Assembly: GCF_030127105.1 (NCBI RefSeq)
Contig: NZ_CP126163.1
Span: 186,001-250,000 of the forward strand
DNA: 64,000 nucleotides
From: Haloarcula pelagica
GTDB lineage: Archaea > Halobacteriota > Halobacteria > Halobacteriales > Haloarculaceae
Direction of reading: 5' to 3'
Each line of letters opens with the position of its first letter. The stretch's first letter is position 1. A program made the position numbers and the translations under genes. Shown piece after piece: positions 8,758 to 48,575 of the stretch. A model generated the notes under the pieces. It saw nothing but the letters and a program-made list of their open reading frames with translations. It was not told the DNA's origin and made no database searches.

Positions 8758-9776
8758 CCGCCGTACGCTCTTGGGTAAGCGATTGTTGGTGGCGTCATAG
8801 CGCAGCTTCGAGGATGGTTTTGAGCGCTTCGTCGCCGGGTTTGCGGCGGACGCGTTTTCGAAGCTGTAACGCTCTGAGATAGGGTGTGAGTTTGTCTTTA
8901 GAGACGCCTCGATGCGGCGAGAGCCACCGTCGCGCCAGCGACGCGTGGCTCTCGCAGGTGTTGACGTGCACGTCTCCATCAGCGTATTCACCCTCGCCGT
9001 GGACGACGTACTGACGGTCGAATGCGTCGTCCTCGTCGAGTGGCTCGTACGCTCGAAAGCCGTCAGTATAGACCGTCAGCGACTCCTCTTTGCGGTCGTC
9101 GAGCAGGAGTCGAATCGTTGACTCATCAGCGGCTTTCGCCGGGTGGACGTAGGTTTCTCCACTACCGCGGTCAGCGAGGATGAACACGGGTGGCTTGTCT
9201 TCGTGATACGTTCCACGACCGCGCGTGGACAGGCCACGCGAGCGCGACCAGTCGTCGCGCTCGCGGCCCTTCTTCCTGCGTTGACGTACAACTCGTCGAT
9301 TTCCACTGGGCCTTCTAATTGTGGCCGAGGCGCGTCCAGCGCCCGCAGGAAGCGCTGGACGCGCCGGTAGACTGTCTTGTACGACACGGCGAGTTCAGCA
9401 TCCAGTTGTCGAATGCTCGTGTTCAGCCGGATATACGTGTAGACGGCGAGATACCACTTCCTGAGCGGTATCGTTGAGTGTTCGAAGACCGTGCCAGTCT
9501 TGTCGTTGAACGTCCGGCCGCAATCCTTACACAGATACCGTTGAAACACCCGATAGCTGCCGTACCGAATCGTCGATTCGGCACGGCAGCGCGGGCAATA
9601 GACGCCGTCATGCCAGCGAATCTGTGCCAGCAGATTCGCGGCCCGACGCTCCGAGACGAACACATTGATTGGCATCATCGTTCGTCGGGTGGCGCGGCCG
9701 CGCCACCCTTGCCCGCTGTGACTTCCAGCTACTGCTCCAACTCACCAACAATCCGCTACAGAAGAGCGCCGCCGTA
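8758..9776. mobile_element. ISH4-type (IS1595 family) insertion with 8-bp target duplication
   Basis: The inserted unit is 8766-9768 (1003 bp). Its ends are imperfect inverted repeats: left CGCTCTTGGGTAAGCGATTG, right (reverse complement) CGCTCTTCTGTAGCGGATTG. It is flanked by the direct repeat CCGCCGTA (8758-8765 and 9769-9776). The uninterrupted IS630 sequence at 20940-20955 shows a single copy of this site. Length and duplication size suit the ISH4 group. Confidence 0.9.
8795..9678 (-). pseudogene. ISH4/IS1595-family transposase, frameshifted
   Basis: The N-terminal part (MMPINVFVSERRAANLLAQI) is followed by a CxxC...CxxC zinc ribbon (CPRCRAESTIRYGSY, then LCKDCGRTF) and the start of an ISXO2-like DDE core (VEIDELYVNAGRR). 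Frame is lost near 9270. The core continues in another frame from about 9187 (MFILADRGSGETYVHPA, VYTDGFRAYEPLDE, VNTCESHASLARRWLSPHRG) to 8795. It fills the ISH4 element. One indel separates it from an intact gene of about 295 residues. Confidence 0.85.
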
Positions 9777-10184: not shown

Positions 10185-10907
10185 ATGGGAAACAAAACTA
10201 TACTGGTGGTCGGGCTGGCCGTATTTTTCGCAGCGGTCGGGATTGGCTTTGTTATCGGACTGCAACTGGATGATTCAACAACAATTCTCGATAGAGATGC
10301 TGGCACATCGGAATCAAATGAACAGGCTCCTGTACAGACTCATACTGTTACAAAACCGAACACACCAAAACCGTCTGTTGATCAGGTAGAGACTTCTTCA
10401 ACCGATATCAATAAGACAGCTGTAAAAAACAATATATCGATTCTTATAAATACAAAACGAAGAGAAGCAGGATTGAACGGACTATCAACAAGTGGAAGAA
10501 CGTCTGAAAAATTAGACGAAGTTGCTAAAAAGCACAGTAGCAGAATGGCTGAGGTAAATCGCTCTGCCCATTCTATTGATGGAATCTCAAGTACAGATCG
10601 CTACCGCAATAGTGGATTGTCGGACATATGCCGTTTCCGGTCAGCATCAGGAACTCATGCTATATCTTCGGAAGGTAACCAACTCGAAGTTATTGGTAAT
10701 ATAAAGCTCAATAGTATTTATTATAAAGATGGTACAGTGAGGCACGTAGCTGACGAGAATGCAATTGCGCAGGCACTGGTTATGGAGTGGATGGAACAGG
10801 GAGCACACAAAAACCGTATCCTCAGGAAAGGGATTGGCCGCATGGGGATCGGAATTGATGTAACTGACAATGGGTTTGTATACGTGACCATTGATCTATG
10901 CGACTAG
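10185..10907 (+). CDS. Membrane-anchored CAP-domain (SCP/PR1-like) protein
   Basis: The 240-residue protein has an N-terminal signal anchor (ILVVGLAVFFAAVGIGFVIG), a Thr/Ser/Pro-rich linker to about residue 80, and a CAP-type domain. CAP features are INTKRREAGLNGLSTS, KKHSSRMAEVNRSAHS, the block ENAIAQALVMEWMEQGAHKN and the closing GIGRMGIGIDVTDNG then VYVTIDLC. It probably acts outside the membrane, and the CAP fold often binds ligands or has protease-like or adhesive roles. The substrate is unknown. The gene is AT-richer than the S-layer genes, suggesting separate origin. It stands alone between IS remnants. Confidence 0.7.
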   Translation: MGNKTILVVGLAVFFAAVGIGFVIGLQLDDSTTILDRDAGTSESNEQAPVQTHTVTKPNTPKPSVDQVETSSTDINKTAVKNNISILINTKRREAGLNGLSTSGRTSEKLDEVAKKHSSRMAEVNRSAHSIDGISSTDRYRNSGLSDICRFRSASGTHAISSEGNQLEVIGNIKLNSIYYKDGTVRHVADENAIAQALVMEWMEQGAHKNRILRKGIGRMGIGIDVTDNGFVYVTIDLCD

Positions 10908-11128
10908 TGCCATCCTCTGCGCTGTGAACGGAAAGACAGCGAAGCTTCCTCAGACAGTTGAGCAAAGCCCGACAACGGCGCAGCTTCCCGCGCGGGAATA
11001 CGAGGTGAACTACCCCTGCCTACTACTCGCGGCATGGTCGCTCGTTCCTTGAAGCAGGGGCTTCCTGATTCGACGACGCGCGTTGCAGGAACAACCGCAG
11101 TTCCCGCAGGGAGCGCAGTCTCCATCTC
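10908..11128 (-). pseudogene. C-terminal tail of TnpB (3' part of a TnpB gene split by IS110)
   Basis: Reads METALPAGTAVV then VVESGSPCFKERA on the minus strand. It corresponds to the tail seen in other TnpB remnants here (VETALPVDTSVSAKCVVEAG). The upstream part of the same gene lies at 12538-12940, with IS110 between. A stem of CCCCTGC (11013-11019) and GCAGGGG (11054-11060) marks the structured 3' end, which in IS200/IS605 elements overlaps the omega-RNA region. Confidence 0.7.
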
Positions 11129-11305
11129 TGAGAATTCTGCTACCTGAACTAACCACCGTTGGCGATATAATGATTTGGGGCTGCTCGCGGTGTCAACCTA
11201 GAGAAAGCAAGAAACCACCAGACTATGGCACTGTGAGGGGATGACCTTCTGGTGTGCGGAGACATCTTGTATGGCGTCACCTGTGGCTCATGATGCTCCA
11301 GCCCG

Positions 11306-11331
11306 ACCGAAGAGAGACGCTACAGCGTCTC
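11306..11331 (-). other. Hairpin abutting the IS110 transposase stop codon
   Basis: Directly after the stop (minus strand) GAGAGACGCT, loop GT, AGCGTCTCTC forms a 10-bp perfect stem. Equivalent hairpins of different sequence follow the other three IS110-type genes in the window, so the structure rather than the sequence is conserved. It may act as a terminator or protect the element from outside transcripts. Confidence 0.6.
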
Positions 11332-12345
11332 TCAGGCACTCACCCCCGGCGGATCGTCTGGTTCCTCACGGCTGAGCATATGGAACAGCGACACCAACAG
11401 CTTGCGAGCTGTTGCTACGATCGCTACTTTATGCGGCTTGTTTCGTGTCTCACGCAACCGCCAGTAGAACTCACTCAAGTACGGATCCTTCGCGTTATGA
11501 ACTGCTGTGTTCGCACACTGGACGAGAATCCAGCGCAAATACCCGTTTCCTTCCTTGCTGATCCCATGCTCAGTCCGCGAGTCCCCAGACTCGCGGACGA
11601 CCGGGTCGAGTCCGGCATAACTCACTGCTTCGCTCGACCGATCAAATCGGTCGACCTCACCCAGCTCGGAGAGGATCATTACGCCCGAATACGCAGCAAC
11701 ACCGGGAGCAGACATCAACAGCGTTGTCTCCTCTAACTCTGTCGCTACCGTCTCAATCTTCCGCTGAAGTCGCTTAATTTTCACCGTGAACTCATCAACT
11801 GCCTCCAACCACTGGTCTAAAACCATCTCATACGGTTCTTCAAGCGTGAGTTCTGCCAAGAACTCACGCCCTCCCTCCGTCCAAAGTTTCCCATCATACA
11901 CGTTTCCGGTCTGATCGAGCAACGCGCTGACTTCGTTTTTGAAATCAGTGCGTTTGTTGACTAGCTTCTTCCGACTACGTGCGAGCGCACGACACCTTCT
12001 GAGCTTCCTTGACGGCACGTAACTCTCTGGGACTTCGTTCAACCGGAGAAACCGTGCAAGCTGCTTCGCATCTACACGGTCGTTCTTCTGTTTCTGTCCA
12101 GCGAGCCAATCCGCTTTCACCGGATTGGCGAGCGTCACATCGAGATACTCGTCGAGCGTATCGTAGATCGTGAAGTAGTTGCTGGTCGCTTCGAGCGCAG
12201 CTTCATTTCCTGCGTACTTCTGTGCGATTTCTTCGAGGTTCGCGTTCTCGACGCGAACCTCTTCAGTCACTTCTCCCATCTCGTCGATAACTGCGACCTG
12301 AGACTCTGTCTTATGGACATCGATGCCCACGTAGTGATCGGTCAT
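11332..12345 (-). CDS. IS110-family transposase/recombinase
   Basis: Intact 337-residue protein. It starts MTDHYVGIDVHKTESQVAVI, the RuvC-like DEDD domain (first Asp in GIDVHK, then EATSNYFTIYD and KNDRVDAKQLARF with further acidic residues). A helical linker is followed by the C-terminal Tnp domain (APGVAAYSGVMILSELGEVD, YAGLDPVVRESGDSR with the candidate catalytic Ser). Length is normal for IS110 (about 330-340). It would catalyse excision and insertion, probably guided by a bridge RNA from the non-coding end. Of the four IS110-type copies here, only this one and that at 29580 are unbroken. ATG 12345 follows the conserved leader directly. Confidence 0.92.
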   Translation of the reverse strand: MTDHYVGIDVHKTESQVAVIDEMGEVTEEVRVENANLEEIAQKYAGNEAALEATSNYFTIYDTLDEYLDVTLANPVKADWLAGQKQKNDRVDAKQLARFLRLNEVPESYVPSRKLRRCRALARSRKKLVNKRTDFKNEVSALLDQTGNVYDGKLWTEGGREFLAELTLEEPYEMVLDQWLEAVDEFTVKIKRLQRKIETVATELEETTLLMSAPGVAAYSGVMILSELGEVDRFDRSSEAVSYAGLDPVVRESGDSRTEHGISKEGNGYLRWILVQCANTAVHNAKDPYLSEFYWRLRETRNKPHKVAIVATARKLLVSLFHMLSREEPDDPPGVSA

Positions 12346-12523
12346 TGGTCACCTCTGGAGTGGCACGCGTGAAGCGGAACGTCATCTCTTCGGGCTTGCA
12401 GCCGGGCTGCGATCCCAATTCTCCAGTTCCTTCGCATGGTTGGTCCGTCACAGGCCCTCGCTCTTTGGCGTAGGAGACTGATCGACCTTTCACTCCCTGA
12501 CATACTTCACGCTCCAGGGACTT
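12346..12523 (-). ncRNA. Candidate bridge-RNA leader of the IS110 element
   Basis: The non-coding leader between the left inverted repeat and the transposase start aligns with the leader at 29382-29579. Conserved blocks include GGAGCGTGAAGT, GATGCGAAGGAAC with GGAGAATTGGGATCGCA, CTGCAAGCCCG and GTTCCGCTTCACGC. The blocks between them differ. One variable block folds as GCAGC-CCG-GCTGC. A conserved scaffold with variable loops is what IS110 bridge RNAs show. This is inference from two-copy comparison; no transcript data. Confidence 0.5.
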
Positions 12524-12537
12524 TAGCAGAATTCTCA

Positions 12538-12940
12538 TGGAGTCACAGGCGTTCCTTCGGAGTGACCCACTCCTAGTTCTGAGAGTCCGCGAAGAAGAAT
12601 GTTCCACGCCGCGTTTGCGTCCCTTTCCACCTCGACAGGCTGGACAGGAGTGTTCACGCACCCCACAGCAGCTTGTCAGTTTCGACGCCACACTGAGCGC
12701 ACTCTTTGGTGGTGCCGTCAGGTTCCACTTCCACGAAGTGTATGCCCTCACGCTTACACTTGTGTCCGAGCATATCGGTGAAGGTGTTCTACGCCGCAGA
12801 TGCCGTATTACGGCTGTTACGCGGCAATTTCAGCATCCCCTTCACGTCGAGGTCTTCGACCGCCACCAGTTCGTACTCCCGAGCGTAGTAGTTCGAGAGT
12901 TTGTGCAGGAAATCACGCCGCTTGTGTGGAGTGCGGTGCT
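12538..12940 (-). pseudogene. TnpB (IS200/IS605) fragment, upstream part of the IS110-split gene
   Basis: Minus-strand remnant with TnpB landmarks in broken frames: a HKRRDFLHKLS-like helix, EYELVAVEDLDVKG-like RuvC segment, ECAQCGVETDKLL with the second half EHSCPACRGG of the C-terminal zinc finger. It joins the tail at 10908-11128 if IS110 is removed. Near 12940 a TnpB 3'-end sequence abuts an internal TnpB sequence, so an earlier internal deletion is likely. Inactive. Confidence 0.7.
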
Positions 12941-21141: not shown

Positions 21142-21666
21142 TCACTCGGGGAACTCTCGCTCCCGGCGCCGTGGTATTCGCTGCTAGAGTCGTACATTGA
21201 GTTGGTAGAGACACTCAACGAAAAGATTCGTAACTTGGAGGAGACGATCGAAGAACGCGCTGGGTCACTGAAGGAGACCCAGCTGCTGATGACGATTCTT
21301 GGCGTGAGTTACTATACGGCGTTGACGATTTACGTTGAATTAGGCGAAATAGGCCGGTTTGACGGTGATAAATCAGTCGTCAGTTATGTCGGATTGAACC
21401 CGGTGATCCGCGAGTCAGGCGACTCGCGGATCGAGGGGAGTATTTCGAAACGTGGATCGGGTCGTGTCCGGTGGTTGCTCGTCCAGGCTGCGAACACAGC
21501 AGTTCACACCTGTAACGATGAGTACCTAAGCCGCTTCTATGAGCGGCTAGCTAGCCGGAAGAACTCACAGAAGGCCATCGTAGCCTGCGCTCGGAAAATG
21601 CTAGTGTCAATCTACCACATGCTAGACCGAGGCGAGGTATACGATCCACCTGATGTGAGTGTGTAG
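21142..21666 (+). pseudogene. IS110-family transposase, 5'-truncated
   Basis: Only the C-terminal half remains: the ELREWLE-type helical linker (MVETLNEKIRNLEETIEERA), LGVSYYTALTIYVELGEIGR and YVGLNPVIRESGDSR with its candidate catalytic Ser. It lacks the RuvC-like DEDD half, lost where IS630 abuts at about 21141. Closest in the window to the broken copy at 47354. Confidence 0.85.
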
Positions 21667-29215: not shown

Positions 29216-29365
29216 TTGATTTCATCACGTCGCTCAAAGGGCGCGTTTGAGAGCCCCTCGACCAGATTTCCGATACAGTTTCAACGTAGTGGAAACGCTC
29301 TGAGATACTGTATCAACTTGTCTTTTGAGACGCTACGACAGCTCTCGCAGGTCAGCGATGACTCC
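29216..29365 (-). pseudogene. ISH4-type transposase, 3' fragment left of IS110
   Basis: Matches the C-terminal end of ISH4-type transposases (AACGCTCTGAGATA...TGTCTTTTGAGACG pattern, coding LTPYLRALQLR-like sequence). It stops at GCTCTCGCAGG, where the IS110 element begins. The rest of the same ISH4 copy continues at 30807. Confidence 0.65.
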
Positions 29366-29381
29366 ATGAGAATCCCGTTGA

Positions 29382-29579
29382 AACCACTGGAGCGTGAAGT
29401 GCGAAATGGAGTTACGAAGGTCGCCACGTCAACCGCGCACCAAAGCGCGTGCAGGTGACAGACCTTGGATGCGAAGGAACAGGAGAATTGGGATCGCAAC
29501 GGCTGACCGTGGTCGGCCAAGGCTGCAAGCCCGGAGCGATGTCGTTCCGCTTCACGCATTCAGGACTCCAGAGGACACC
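29382..29579 (+). ncRNA. Candidate bridge-RNA leader of the IS110 element
   Basis: The non-coding leader is conserved in blocks with 12346-12523: GGAGCGTGAAGT, GATGCGAAGGAAC then GGAGAATTGGGATCGCA, GGCTGCAAGCCCG and GTTCCGCTTCACGC. The stretches between differ. One variable block folds here as GCTGACC-GT-GGTCGGC. The pattern fits a bridge RNA with fixed scaffold and specificity loops. Inference only. Confidence 0.5.
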
Positions 29580-30602
29580 ATGACCGCAACCACTGATCAC
29601 TACTTGGGCATTGACCTCCACAAACGCAAAGCGCAAGTCGCTGTCCTCGATGACGAAGGCGAAGTCGTTGAAGAGGTCCGCGTCGCCAACGCGGACCTCG
29701 ACGGAATCGCACAGAAGTACGCTGGAAGTAGTGCTGCACTCGAAGCGGGAAGCAATTACTTCACGATTTACGACAGGCTTGATGAAGAGTTGGATGTGAC
29801 GCTCGCCAATCCGGCCAAGGCCGATTGGCTCGAAGACCAGAAACAGAAGAACGATCGGAAGGGCGTCAAAAACCTCGCGCGGTATCTGCGGTTGGGCGAA
29901 GTGCCCGAAAGCTACGTCCCACCTGAAGAATGCCGGCGCTACCGCGCGCTTGCGCGCGGTCGTAAGAAGTTGGTAGAGAAGCGTTCAGACTTCAAAAACG
30001 AGGTCAACTCACTGCTTGATCAGAACGGCGTCACCTACGACGGGTCGTTGTGGAGCGATCAAGGGCGTGAGTTCCTCCGCGAACTCATGCTCGACGATGC
30101 GTCGGAGTTGTTGTTGGAGCAGTGGTTGGAAGCAATCGATGAGTTCACCGTGAAGATCAAGCGGATGCAGCGGCGGATCGAAGAGGTAGCGGCTGAGGTA
30201 GATGAGCTGAATACGTTGATGTCTGCGCCTGGTATAGCGGCATTTTCTGGCTTGATGATCTACAGCGAGATCGGTGAAGTAAAGCGGTTTGACCGCGCGG
30301 CTGAAGTGGTGAGTCATGCCGGGTTAGACCCAGTAATCCGCGAGTCTGGCGACTCGCGGAGAGAGGGCCAGATCAGCAAGGAAGGAAACGGCTACTTGCG
30401 ATGGATCCTGGTCCAGTGCGCGAACACCGCGGTTCATAACGCGAAGGACCCGTACTTGAGTCAGTTCTACTGGCGGTTACGCAACAAGCGAAATAAACCG
30501 CACAAGGTAGCAATCGTGGCAACAGCGCGGAAGCTGTTATTGGCGTTGTTCAATATGCTCAGGAAGAACGAACCGTGCGACCCACCGGAGGTGAGCGCCT
30601 GA
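29580..30602 (+). CDS. IS110-family transposase/recombinase
   Basis: The 340-residue protein starts at ATG 29580 (MTATTDHYLGIDLHKRKAQV), directly after the conserved leader; a longer upstream frame would eat into that leader. It has a RuvC-like domain (GIDLHK, EAGSNYFTIYD) and a Tnp domain (SHAGLDPVIRESGDSR). One oddity: the conserved KNDRVDAKxLAR motif reads KNDRKGVKNLARY here, so the expected acidic residue after NDR is missing. If that Asp is catalytic (DEDD), this copy may be inactive although open. Confidence 0.9.
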   Translation: MTATTDHYLGIDLHKRKAQVAVLDDEGEVVEEVRVANADLDGIAQKYAGSSAALEAGSNYFTIYDRLDEELDVTLANPAKADWLEDQKQKNDRKGVKNLARYLRLGEVPESYVPPEECRRYRALARGRKKLVEKRSDFKNEVNSLLDQNGVTYDGSLWSDQGREFLRELMLDDASELLLEQWLEAIDEFTVKIKRMQRRIEEVAAEVDELNTLMSAPGIAAFSGLMIYSEIGEVKRFDRAAEVVSHAGLDPVIRESGDSRREGQISKEGNGYLRWILVQCANTAVHNAKDPYLSQFYWRLRNKRNKPHKVAIVATARKLLLALFNMLRKNEPCDPPEVSA

Positions 30603-30623
30603 GAGACGCTCCGCGTCTCTCTT
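30603..30623 (+). other. Hairpin at the IS110 transposase stop codon
   Basis: GAGAGACGC, loop TCC, GCGTCTCTC: 9-bp perfect stem overlapping the end of the gene. Same position as hairpins after the other IS110 genes. Confidence 0.6.
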
Positions 30624-30806
30624 TGGGCGGGCCAGCGCACGATGAGCAACTGGTGTGTCGTGTGAAGATGCCCCCGCACGGCGGATGTGGCAGTGACTGA
30701 TTCGACTGCTTGCTATGGGTTTTCACTCTCAGTGAGAGGCGAGCAACAGGACCGCCAGAAAATCTAAGAACATCGACGTGGTTTGTTCAGATAGCGGGAT
30801 TCTCAG

Positions 30807-31503
30807 CGATGTTGACGTCCACCTCGTCGTCAGCACATTCACCGTCACCGTAGACGACGTATTCGTGGTCGAGTCTGTCGCCTTCGTCGAGTGGTTCGTA
30901 CGCTCGAAAGCGGTCGGTATAGGCCGTGGGCGACTCTTTTCGGCGGTCGGACAGCAGGAGTCAAATCGTCGATTCGTCTGCCGCTTTCGCTGGGATCACG
31001 TATCGCTATTTAGTGCCGCGATCTGCCAGAATGAACACGGGTGGCTTGTCGCCGCCAGAAATACACCCGCGCATGGACAGGCCAAGCGAGCGTGACAGTG
31101 GTCGCGCTCGCAGCCTTTCTTCCCGGCAAAGACGTACACTTCGTCGATTTCGACCGGATCGACCGGATCAAGGGAAGGCGCATCAAGGCTCTGGTAAAGC
31201 GCTCGATGCGCTGGTACATCATTCTGTGTGTCACACCAATCCCGCACTGTAGTTGGTGGAGATTCGTATCAAACCAAAGGAAGACGTAAATTGAGACCAG
31301 CTACCGCCGCAGCGCGACCTTCGAATGAGTGAAAATCGTGCCCGTCTCGTCGTTGAACGTGCGGCCGCAATTCTTACAGAGATACCGCTGAAACTTTTGG
31401 TTGCTACCGTTTCTGACCGTCCGGTCAGAACGGCAGCGAGGACAGGTAACACCGTCACGCTAGCGACCTGCTCTAACAGGTCCGGAGACCGATTCCGATC
31501 CAA
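30807..31503 (-). pseudogene. ISH4-type transposase remnant (right of IS110)
   Basis: Continuation of the ISH4 copy at 29216-29365. On the minus strand the zinc-ribbon region, then KSFSGISVRIAA-type DDE segments can be followed through several frames (coding TKSTSLPGRKAASATTVT in one). Many indels; inactive. Confidence 0.7.
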
Positions 31504-47130: not shown

Positions 47131-47150
47131 ACTCGATGGAAATTCTGCTA

Positions 47151-47353
47151 TCCCATGAGAGCGTGGAACAAGATATGGGACGCAAGAGACCGATCCGTGT
47201 TTCGTGCCGTCGAGCACGTTTAACTGACTGGTCTAAGTGCGTAAGAAGCCGAGGATTGGGCGCTACAGCCCGGATGCCGCGGGGCGCGGCATCCGGGAAA
47301 GCCCGCATAGGTGAATCTCTGTTCCATGCACTGGCGTCCCGGAGTGAGAATCA
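47151..47353 (+). ncRNA. Candidate bridge-RNA leader with a 12-bp GC hairpin
   Basis: Non-coding leader of the IS110 element. CCCGGATGCCGC (47269-47280), loop GGGGC, GCGGCATCCGGG (47286-47297) is a perfect 12-bp stem. It occupies the same relative place as the variable hairpins in the leaders at 12346 and 29382. Inferred bridge RNA; no transcript data. Confidence 0.45.
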
Positions 47354-48345
47354 ATGTACCTTGGAATTGATGTTCACAAGCGGCACGCACAGGTGGCAGT
47401 AATGGATGAAGACGGTGAGATTGTCGAAGAGGTTCGCGTCGAGAACGCGAACCTCGACGAACTCGCCCAGCGGTACGCTGGTGCCGAGGCCGTCATCGAA
47501 GCGACCACCAATTACTACCACATCCACGACACGCTGTCAGAGCATTTGGATGTGACTGTTGCTCACCCTGGGAAACTCTCGCTGATCGCAAACGCGGACA
47601 AGAAGACTGATCGCGTCGACGCTAAAGAGTTGGCGCGGATGGGTCGGTTGAATTCAGTGCCGGAGAGTTACGTTCCGACCGACGAAATCAGGAAGCCCGC
47701 GCACGAGTGCGCGGGCGACAGAAACTGGTAGAGACTCGGACCGACTACGCCAACAAGATCCACGGATTGTTATCCGAACACGGGATCACGCGTGAGATCA
47801 AGCCGCTGAGTGTATCGGGGCGAGAGTCCCTTCGGGACCTCTCGCTCCCGACGCCGTGGGACGAGTTGTTAGCGTCGTATCTCACGATGATCGAGACACT
47901 GACCGAAGAGATCGAGCGACTCAGCGCAATCGAAGAGCGCGCTGGGTCTCTGAAGGAGACCCTGCTGATGACGATTCCCGGCGTAAGCTACTATTCGGCC
48001 CTGATGATCTACGCCGAAGTCGGCGATATAGGGCGGTTTGATAGGGACAAAGAAGTCGTGAGTTACGCTGGATTGAACCCGGTGATCCGCGAGTCAGGCG
48101 ACTCGCGGATCGAAGGTGGTATCTCGAAACGTGGATCCCGGCAGTTACGCTGGATCCTCGTCCAGTGTGCGCGCACAGCCGTCCATACCTGCAACGATGA
48201 GTATCTTAGTCGGTTCTACGACCGATTAGCGGGAAAGAAAGGATCGCAAAAAGCGATCGTCGCAACTGCTCGCAAGTTGCTGGTGTCTATCTTCCACATG
48301 CTCGACCGAAAGGAGGTGTATAACCCGCCAGGTGTGAGTGTCTGA
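47354..48345 (+). pseudogene. IS110-family transposase, frameshifted
   Basis: MYLGIDVHKRHAQVAVMDED, EATTNYYHIHD and KKTDRVDAKELARMGRLN (DEDD domain) are open to codon 115. One base is missing near 47696 (EIRKPAHECAG instead of EIRKARARVRG). The rest, MRGRQKLVETRTDYANKIHG to YAGLNPVIRESGDSR and the end, is open in the next frame. A single indel from intact. Confidence 0.88.
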
Positions 48346-48369
48346 CCGCCGCCGGTCCGGCGGCGGTCA
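48343..48369 (+). other. 13-bp hairpin overlapping the IS110 stop codon
   Basis: TGACCGCCGCCGG, T, CCGGCGGCGGTCA: a perfect 13-bp palindrome that begins with the stop codon itself. Strongest of the four IS110 3' hairpins in the window. Confidence 0.65.
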
Positions 48370-48575
48370 GTAGCCGGGTCGCAGGCCGCATCAGCCACAG
48401 CTACCGCACACGATGTCTCCCGCCTGCCACTGATTGAGATCAACATCAGCCTTTCGTCTGGTCATTTCCTAGATTTTGGGTCCAATCAGCGCACCGGTCC
48501 AAAATACTATGTCGTCAACGGTGGTTTGTTCAGGTAGCAGAATTTCCATAGGCGAACACGGACAATCCACGTTAT

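What the first reader, a model, noticed from the sequence alone, without database searches (positions are those of the whole stretch)
29366..29579. Conserved structured leaders of IS110 elements: candidate bridge RNAs
The leaders upstream of the intact IS110 genes (12346-12523 minus strand; 29382-29579 plus strand) share blocks such as GGAGAATTGGGATCGCA and GTTCCGCTTCACGC. The blocks between them diverge and refold (GCAGC-CCG-GCTGC versus GCTGACC-GT-GGTCGGC). A third element (47151-47353) has a 12-bp perfect GC hairpin in the equivalent place. Known: IS110/IS621 recombinases use a bridge RNA from the non-coding end with target- and donor-binding loops. Inference: these are haloarchaeal bridge RNAs adapted to high salt.
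Basis: partly seen in the sequence, partly recalled or inferred. Interest (0 to 1): 0.65.

Follow-up and report, generated by a model that had tools for sequence, protein, structure and literature searches.

The report
Haloarchaeal IS110 bridge RNAs, IS1111-style guides
The leaders in front of these salt-loving archaea's IS110 jumping genes look like guide RNAs: one loop spells out the DNA site where each element has landed and the other the element's own ends, in an arrangement that mixes features of the two known groups of such elements.

Summary
Each of the three window elements has a ~200-nt 5' leader that folds with strong covariation. An unbiased scan of 56 related haloarchaeal elements (leader and trailer against both flanks) gave four signals at z 6-16. 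All four lie in the leader, at the four places a bridge RNA needs: two target guides and two donor guides. The 3' non-coding end gave none. For 45 distinct target loops, guides match their own flanks 615/720 against 447±9 for shuffled flanks. Element 1 has an exact empty site: uninterrupted tnpB genes read ACGCCTG-TG-GAGACTG, covering all 14 nt of its guides, with a 2-bp TG core. Element 2's guides match an uninterrupted paralogous transposase gene inside the window. Handshake-like bases also covary.

The architecture is a hybrid. It has long subterminal inverted repeats and the IS1111 guide order (top-strand match 5', checked on IS4321), but the RNA lies upstream of the gene, as in IS110/IS621. 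Prior papers list such elements only as exceptions with two long non-coding ends (ISHvo10). The 'adapted to high salt' clause is untested. All of this is sequence evidence; no RNA has been seen. I rate it a new variant of a known kind.

The parts
29361..30811 (+). Element 2 (el2), whole IS110-family element, boundaries by comparison with relatives (TG core outside on the left, inside on the right)
29392..29559 (+). Predicted bridge RNA of el2 (covariance-model extent)
   Evidence: 120.5 bits; el2 was among the sequences the model was built from
29426..29433 (+). el2 target-loop 5' guide (top-strand match) ACGTCAAC = reverse complement of right flank GTTGACGT
29451..29457 (+). el2 target-loop 3' guide (bottom-strand match) GCAGGTG; matches the uninterrupted paralogue at 8954, displaced by 8 nt at el2's own left flank
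29482..29485 (+). el2 donor-loop 5' guide (GGAG, complement of LE CTCC)
29535..29541 (+). el2 donor-loop 3' guide AGCGATG = sense of right element end
29367..29377 (+). el2 left subterminal inverted repeat TGAGAATCCCG
30795..30805 (+). el2 right subterminal inverted repeat CGGGATTCTCA
29580..30602 (+). el2 transposase/recombinase (340 aa)
11123..12543 (-). Element 1 (el1), whole element; empty site known
12365..12512 (-). Predicted bridge RNA of el1
   Evidence: 103.3 bits; not in the model-building set
12473..12480 (-). el1 target-loop 5' guide CAGTCTCC = reverse complement of GGAGACTG
12449..12455 (-). el1 target-loop 3' guide GCCTGTG = left target
12421..12425 (-). el1 donor-loop 5' guide TGGAG
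12383..12389 (-). el1 donor-loop 3' guide AGAGATG = right element end
12524..12537 (-). el1 left subterminal inverted repeat TGAGAATTCTGCTA
11129..11142 (-). el1 right subterminal inverted repeat TAGCAGAATTCTCA
11332..12345 (-). el1 transposase/recombinase (337 aa)
47131..48554 (+). Element 3 (el3), whole element, transposase frameshifted
47161..47331 (+). Predicted bridge RNA of el3
   Evidence: 176.1 bits; el3 was among the sequences the model was built from
47195..47202 (+). el3 target-loop 5' guide CCGTGTTT (right flank AACACGG)
47220..47226 (+). el3 target-loop 3' guide TTAACTG = left flank
47307..47313 (+). el3 donor-loop 3' guide ATAGGTG (right end is ATAGGCG, one mismatch)
47136..47150 (+). 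el3 left subterminal inverted repeat ATGGAAATTCTGCTA
48535..48549 (+). el3 right subterminal inverted repeat TAGCAGAATTTCCAT
8954..8968 (+). Uninterrupted paralogue (IS1595-type transposase gene) of el2's target: GCAGGTG|TTGACGTG, matched by both el2 guides

Best explanation
The 5' leader of these haloarchaeal IS110-family elements encodes, on the sense strand, a bridge (seek) RNA of about 150-170 nt. A long-range helix (GCGTGAA/TTCACGC) closes two internal loops. The first is the target loop: its 5' side pairs with the top strand to the right of a 2-bp core and its 3' side with the bottom strand to the left. The second is the donor loop, which pairs in the same way with the joined element ends (complement of LE, sense of RE). 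The DEDD recombinase uses this RNA to join the circular element to the target exactly at the core TG, with no target duplication. [quoted passage not shown] SHOWN by sequence: structure covariation, guide-target and guide-donor complementarity, an exact empty site, long inverted repeats, guide order. INFERRED: transcription, binding by the recombinase, circle intermediate, recombination chemistry, and a junction promoter (TATA-like motif in the right end).
For: Unbiased scan of 56 elements: four diagonals in the leader (target guides z 15-16; donor guides z 11 and 6.4), none for the trailer beyond background (z about 4) except a trivial self-match of the RE. 36 distinct guide pairs: top-strand guide 176/252 against 82±8 and bottom-strand guide 162/216 against 67±7 in 20,000 permutations. 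45 distinct loops, 615/720 against 447±9. Twelve held-out plasmid elements (43-58% protein identity): 13.4/17 own against 10.4 for other flanks; own strictly beats every mismatched flank in 9 of 12, with 2 ties and 1 failure. A covariance model built from other leaders finds all 12 held-out leaders on the sense strand. Covariation counts. Exact empty site for el1 in tnpB genes of other haloarchaea. Uninterrupted paralogue matching el2's guides. Handshake positions: donor loop +0 40/45 against 21±3, +1 29/45 against 17±3; target loop +1 43/45 against 28±2. Natural reprogramming: L054 and L034 leaders are close relatives whose 3' guides GCTATTG and GTTGCTG track flanks GGCTATTG and CTTGCTG.
Against: No transcript or protein-RNA data. 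Donor-guide covariation lies within the same element, so shared descent inflates it, and the LE-side donor guide matches only 4-6 of 7 nt. el2's left target half is displaced by 8 nt at its own insertion, and held-out L116 does not match its flanks. The alignment is poor in the donor-loop hairpin across subgroups.
Confidence: 0.93

Rival explanations
1. As in other IS1111-type elements, the guide RNA lies in the 3' non-coding end; the structured leader only regulates translation.
For: Subterminal inverted repeats of 11-18 bp and a ~205-nt 3' non-coding end are IS1111 traits; IS4321 does carry its guides in the 3' end.
Against: The 3' end gives no guide signal against either flank, no consensus fold, and little conservation outside the last ~56 nt.
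Confidence: 0.03
2. The leader is a cis-acting mRNA leader or attenuator; the resemblance between guides and flanks reflects conserved element ends that were wrongly drawn as flanks.
For: Some flank positions next to the core are conserved, and the leader adjoins the start codon.
Against: Uninterrupted sites in other genomes show that the matched sequence is target, not element. Matches extend 6-8 nt into variable flanks, in the correct strand and order, and beat flanks of other elements.
Confidence: 0.02
3. The RNA is made from the opposite strand of the leader.
For: RNAalifold gives the antisense strand an energy as good as the sense strand on the raw alignment.
Against: In the covarying helices 86 cells are G-U in sense against 33 that would be G-U only in antisense. 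Loop geometry (guide 3' ends facing the core) and handshake bases on the 3' side fit only the sense strand, given IS621.
Confidence: 0.03

Closest known systems
IS1111 group elements with seekRNA (IS4321, ISEc11, ISPa11; PMC11187229)
   Same: Long subterminal inverted repeats; top-strand match 5' of bottom-strand match (read directly for IS4321); insertion at a fixed site without duplication; ATGG/CCATAG bordering the repeats.
   Different: Their guide RNA lies downstream of tnp, here upstream. In a small, poorly resolved tree the haloarchaeal proteins do not group with IS4321.
IS110 group elements with bridge RNA (IS621, ISCro4, ISEc21; PMC11208160, PMC11208158, PMC11187229)
   Same: RNA in the left end on the gene's strand; target loop then donor loop; 2-bp core; [quoted passage not shown]
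   Different: Guide order relative to the gene is reversed; inverted repeats of 11-18 bp instead of 2-3 bp; protein only distantly related (PDB hits E 3e-10 and 4e-8).
ISHvo10 and ISAcp5 (noted in PMC11187229 as diverged, long non-coding regions on both sides)
   Same: ISHvo10 is also haloarchaeal (by its name, Haloferax volcanii); two long non-coding ends.
   Different: That paper does not say, in its main text, which end carries the guide RNA or in what order; ISHvo10's own sequence was not compared here.

Membership tests
IS110 family (broad sense) | DEDD_Tnp_IS110 (PF01548) plus Transposase_20 (PF02371) with G--P----SG motif | tested here: met
IS110 family bridge/seek RNA | Non-coding RNA with a loop complementary to both strands of the target around a core | tested here: met
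IS110 family bridge/seek RNA | Second loop complementary to the donor (joined element ends) | tested here: met
   the LE-side guide is short (4-6 of 7)
IS110 family bridge/seek RNA | Transcribed and bound by the recombinase | not testable with these tools
   no expression or binding data
IS110 group (IS621-like) | Bridge RNA in the left (5') end | tested here: met
IS110 group (IS621-like) | Bottom-strand match 5' of top-strand match; very short STIR | tested here: not met
   yardstick and PMC11187229
IS1111 group | Subterminal inverted repeats of about 7-17 bp | tested here: met
   (nearly all usable elements, mostly 11-18 bp)
IS1111 group | Top-strand match 5' of bottom-strand match | tested here: met
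IS1111 group | Guide RNA downstream of tnp | tested here: not met
IS1111 group | Transposase clusters with IS1111 transposases | tested here: inconclusive
   separate from IS4321, weak support, few references

The most novel reading that the evidence does not exclude
A widespread haloarchaeal clade (RNA found in 24 of 117 genomes sampled) has a third architecture: IS1111-type ends and guide order with an IS110-type upstream bridge RNA. Guide order therefore follows the element ends, not the side on which the RNA is encoded. The clade also gives rise to mini-elements of about 0.5-0.8 kb that keep ends and bridge RNA but lack the recombinase.
Probability: 0.6. Interest if true: 0.6.

Novelty: new variant of a known kind. 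Interest (0 to 1): 0.52.

Why it matters
Bridge RNAs direct recombination between two DNAs through two separate guide loops. In the bacterial elements studied so far, guide order and RNA location change together between IS110 and IS1111. Here they come apart, which supports the published idea that the RNA moved from one end to the other and suggests that the order of guides goes with the element ends. It also gives many natural guide/target pairs and exact uninterrupted sites from organisms with high intracellular salt, so an archaeal bridge recombinase could be tested directly.

Tried and rejected
Rfam gathering scan of the window: no family. The genome-contig scan with the el2 protein gave three loci, of which two are close relatives; the set was built from the genome search instead. 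Empty-site searches for G243 and G128 copies and for el3 found no orthologous uninterrupted site. RNAalifold on the raw alignment favoured the antisense strand slightly; rejected after counting G-U cells in the covarying helices. The nearest bacterial plasmid elements did not give clear inverted repeats or a resolved tree. The idea that the 3' end holds a second guide RNA was tested and dropped. The first IS4321 copy fetched did not show the usual Tn21-type flank, so three others were used as yardstick.

Full report
THE OBSERVATION. The window is part of a haloarchaeal plasmid contig (G000:C3:186001-250000). It holds two intact IS110-family genes (11332-12345 minus; 29580-30602 plus), a frameshifted third (47354-48345) and a fragment near 21145. 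The shared leader blocks are real. I collected related elements from 392 genomes of the same order plus extra stretches; 56 elements were usable.

ELEMENT ENDS. Nearly all elements carry an inverted repeat, mostly 11-18 bp and perfect, between left and right ends, with ~200 nt non-coding on the left and ~205 nt on the right (L019 and L070, where no such repeat was found, were left out). The repeat sequence differs between subgroups (TGAGAATCCCGCT, TGAGAATTCTGCTA, ATGAAAGCCTGCTA, ATGGAAATTCTGCTA, ATGGAAACGCTGCTA, ATGGGAAAACCTGCTACC). This is the subterminal inverted repeat of IS1111 elements, not the 2-3 bp of IS110 (PMC11208160).

WHERE THE GUIDES ARE. I scanned every leader and trailer column against every flank position for both strands, using observed minus expected agreement summed along 8-nt diagonals. 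Four diagonals stand out. Leader columns ~76-87 are complementary to the right flank (z 15). Columns ~100-111 are identical to the left flank (z 15.6). Columns ~130-140 are complementary to the left element end (z 6.4). Columns ~297-306 are identical to the right element end (z 11). The trailer stays near z 4, apart from one trivial hit of the right end on itself. Per-position counts show the bottom-strand guide pairing about positions -7 to -1 and the top-strand guide about -1 to +7 around a TG. Guide-to-flank matches greatly exceed permutations. Two close relatives, L054 and L034, differ in their 3' guide (GCTATTG against GTTGCTG) exactly as their flanks differ, a natural reprogramming.

HELD-OUT TEST. 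Twelve plasmid elements not used above (L108-L119, 43-58% protein identity) were scored without fixing the guide position. Their own target beats all eleven mismatched targets in nine, ties in two, fails in one (L116). Own targets score 13.4 of 17 on average, mismatched targets 10.4, reversed guide order 11.8, trailers about 10.8. A covariance model (R1) built from other leaders finds all twelve on the sense strand in the leader. It finds nothing in the bacterial IS110/IS1111 loci of the same search, IS4321 included. In 117 haloarchaeal genomes it hits 24, in 14 of 48 genera.

UNINTERRUPTED SITES. el1 lies in the 3' part of an IS200/IS605 tnpB gene. Ten tnpB copies in other haloarchaea read ACGCCTGTGGAGACTG without interruption, and an eleventh differs at the core (CCTGCAGAGAC) (tnpB confirmed by Pfam). 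el1's flanks are ACGCCTGTG|ACTCC and GAGATG|GAGACTG, so insertion is exact with a shared TG and no duplication. el1's guides GCCTGTG and CAGTCTCC cover the whole 14-nt target. el2 lies in an IS1595-type transposase gene. The paralogue in the window (8954) reads GCAGGTGTTGACGTG, matched by el2's guides; the codons are H-V-N-T-C-E, which I take to be the catalytic glutamate motif (the last step is inference). el2's own left junction carries 8 extra nucleotides, CAGCGATG, identical to its right end (unexplained).

STRUCTURE. On 39 leaders a six-helix model has 87.7% of cells paired, 116 both-side changes (shuffled 35±5), covariation score 0.256 (0.138±0.006), and sliding the partners destroys it. 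The target-loop outer stem is 100% paired with compensatory changes. A closing helix GCGTGAA/TTCACGC (GCATGGA/TCCATGC in other members) brackets both loops. G-U pairs favour the sense strand (86 against 33). [quoted passage not shown] Shared descent inflates this last test, but independent changes occur (L053 and L059: CAT in loop and target).

POLARITY. In PMC11187229 IS1111 seekRNAs have the top-strand match 5' of the bottom-strand match, and ISEc21 (IS110) the reverse. To check the frame I read IS4321 in Tn21-type inverted repeats: AAAACGGAA (complement of the right side) precedes TATTTTC (left side) in its 3' end. The haloarchaeal order is the same, but the RNA is upstream. Rotating the target by 180 degrees makes the loop geometry identical to IS621, so I read this as the same machine with the gene and RNA placed differently relative to the element ends.

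PROMOTER (inference). The right end is conserved around -56 to -26 with an AT-rich TATA-like block and CGTGGTTTG. In a circle this would lie just upstream of the leader, as the junction promoter does in IS621.

WHAT IS NEW. That IS110-family elements use bridge RNAs is known, and published models predicted bridge RNAs for most catalogued IS110-family elements; whether these included haloarchaeal ones I could not check. PMC11187229 lists a few IS1111 members with an upstream non-coding region (ISMtsp17) and ISHvo10 and ISAcp5 with two; in the papers held I found no assignment of the guides in such elements. The added points are the assignment to the upstream end with IS1111 order, uninterrupted sites, a covariance model, and mini-elements with the RNA but no recombinase. 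The protein tree is too small to say whether the clade belongs to IS1111.

Noticed in passing
L158 (G105:C86:21538-22045), L142 (G112:C1 near 3109204), L148 (G052:C2 near 14952): Elements of about 0.5-0.8 kb with both inverted repeats and the bridge RNA but no recombinase; in L158 the gene is reduced to ATGCAGCCAACTGGAGGTGCCTGA. G053 (L143) shares the same deletion layout at 73% identity, though without a recognisable left repeat. They look like non-autonomous bridge-RNA elements.
   Followed up: partly
window 29267-64000 and G000:C3:1-42858: The contig start repeats its last 42.9 kb (99.8% identical over the first 20 kb, mostly indel differences): probably an untrimmed circular overlap of a ~215-kb plasmid, so elements 2 and 3 are each assembled twice.
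   Followed up: yes
window 29340-29366: el2's left junction has GCAGGT + CAGCGATG + ACTCC: 8 nt identical to its right end lie between target and element. Shifted crossover or remnant of an earlier insertion; unexplained.
   Followed up: partly
window 10904-11122 and 12544 onward: el1 interrupts the end of an IS200/IS605 tnpB gene whose upstream part here is already frameshifted. The adjoining ~120 bp is a very common repeat (hits in 106 of 146 genomes of the family), probably the tnpB end with its omega RNA.
   Followed up: partly
G128:C1 near 1882042-1883203 and 3529376-3530538: A 180-bp sequence near an IS110 copy recurs 11 more times, partly in tandem at a spacing of about 491 bp.
   Followed up: no
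L028, L038, L050, L057 flanks: The commonest target, GTGCTG|AATA, often lies next to TGATAGGTTT-AGC-like sequence, suggesting a dispersed intergenic repeat family as target.
   Followed up: no
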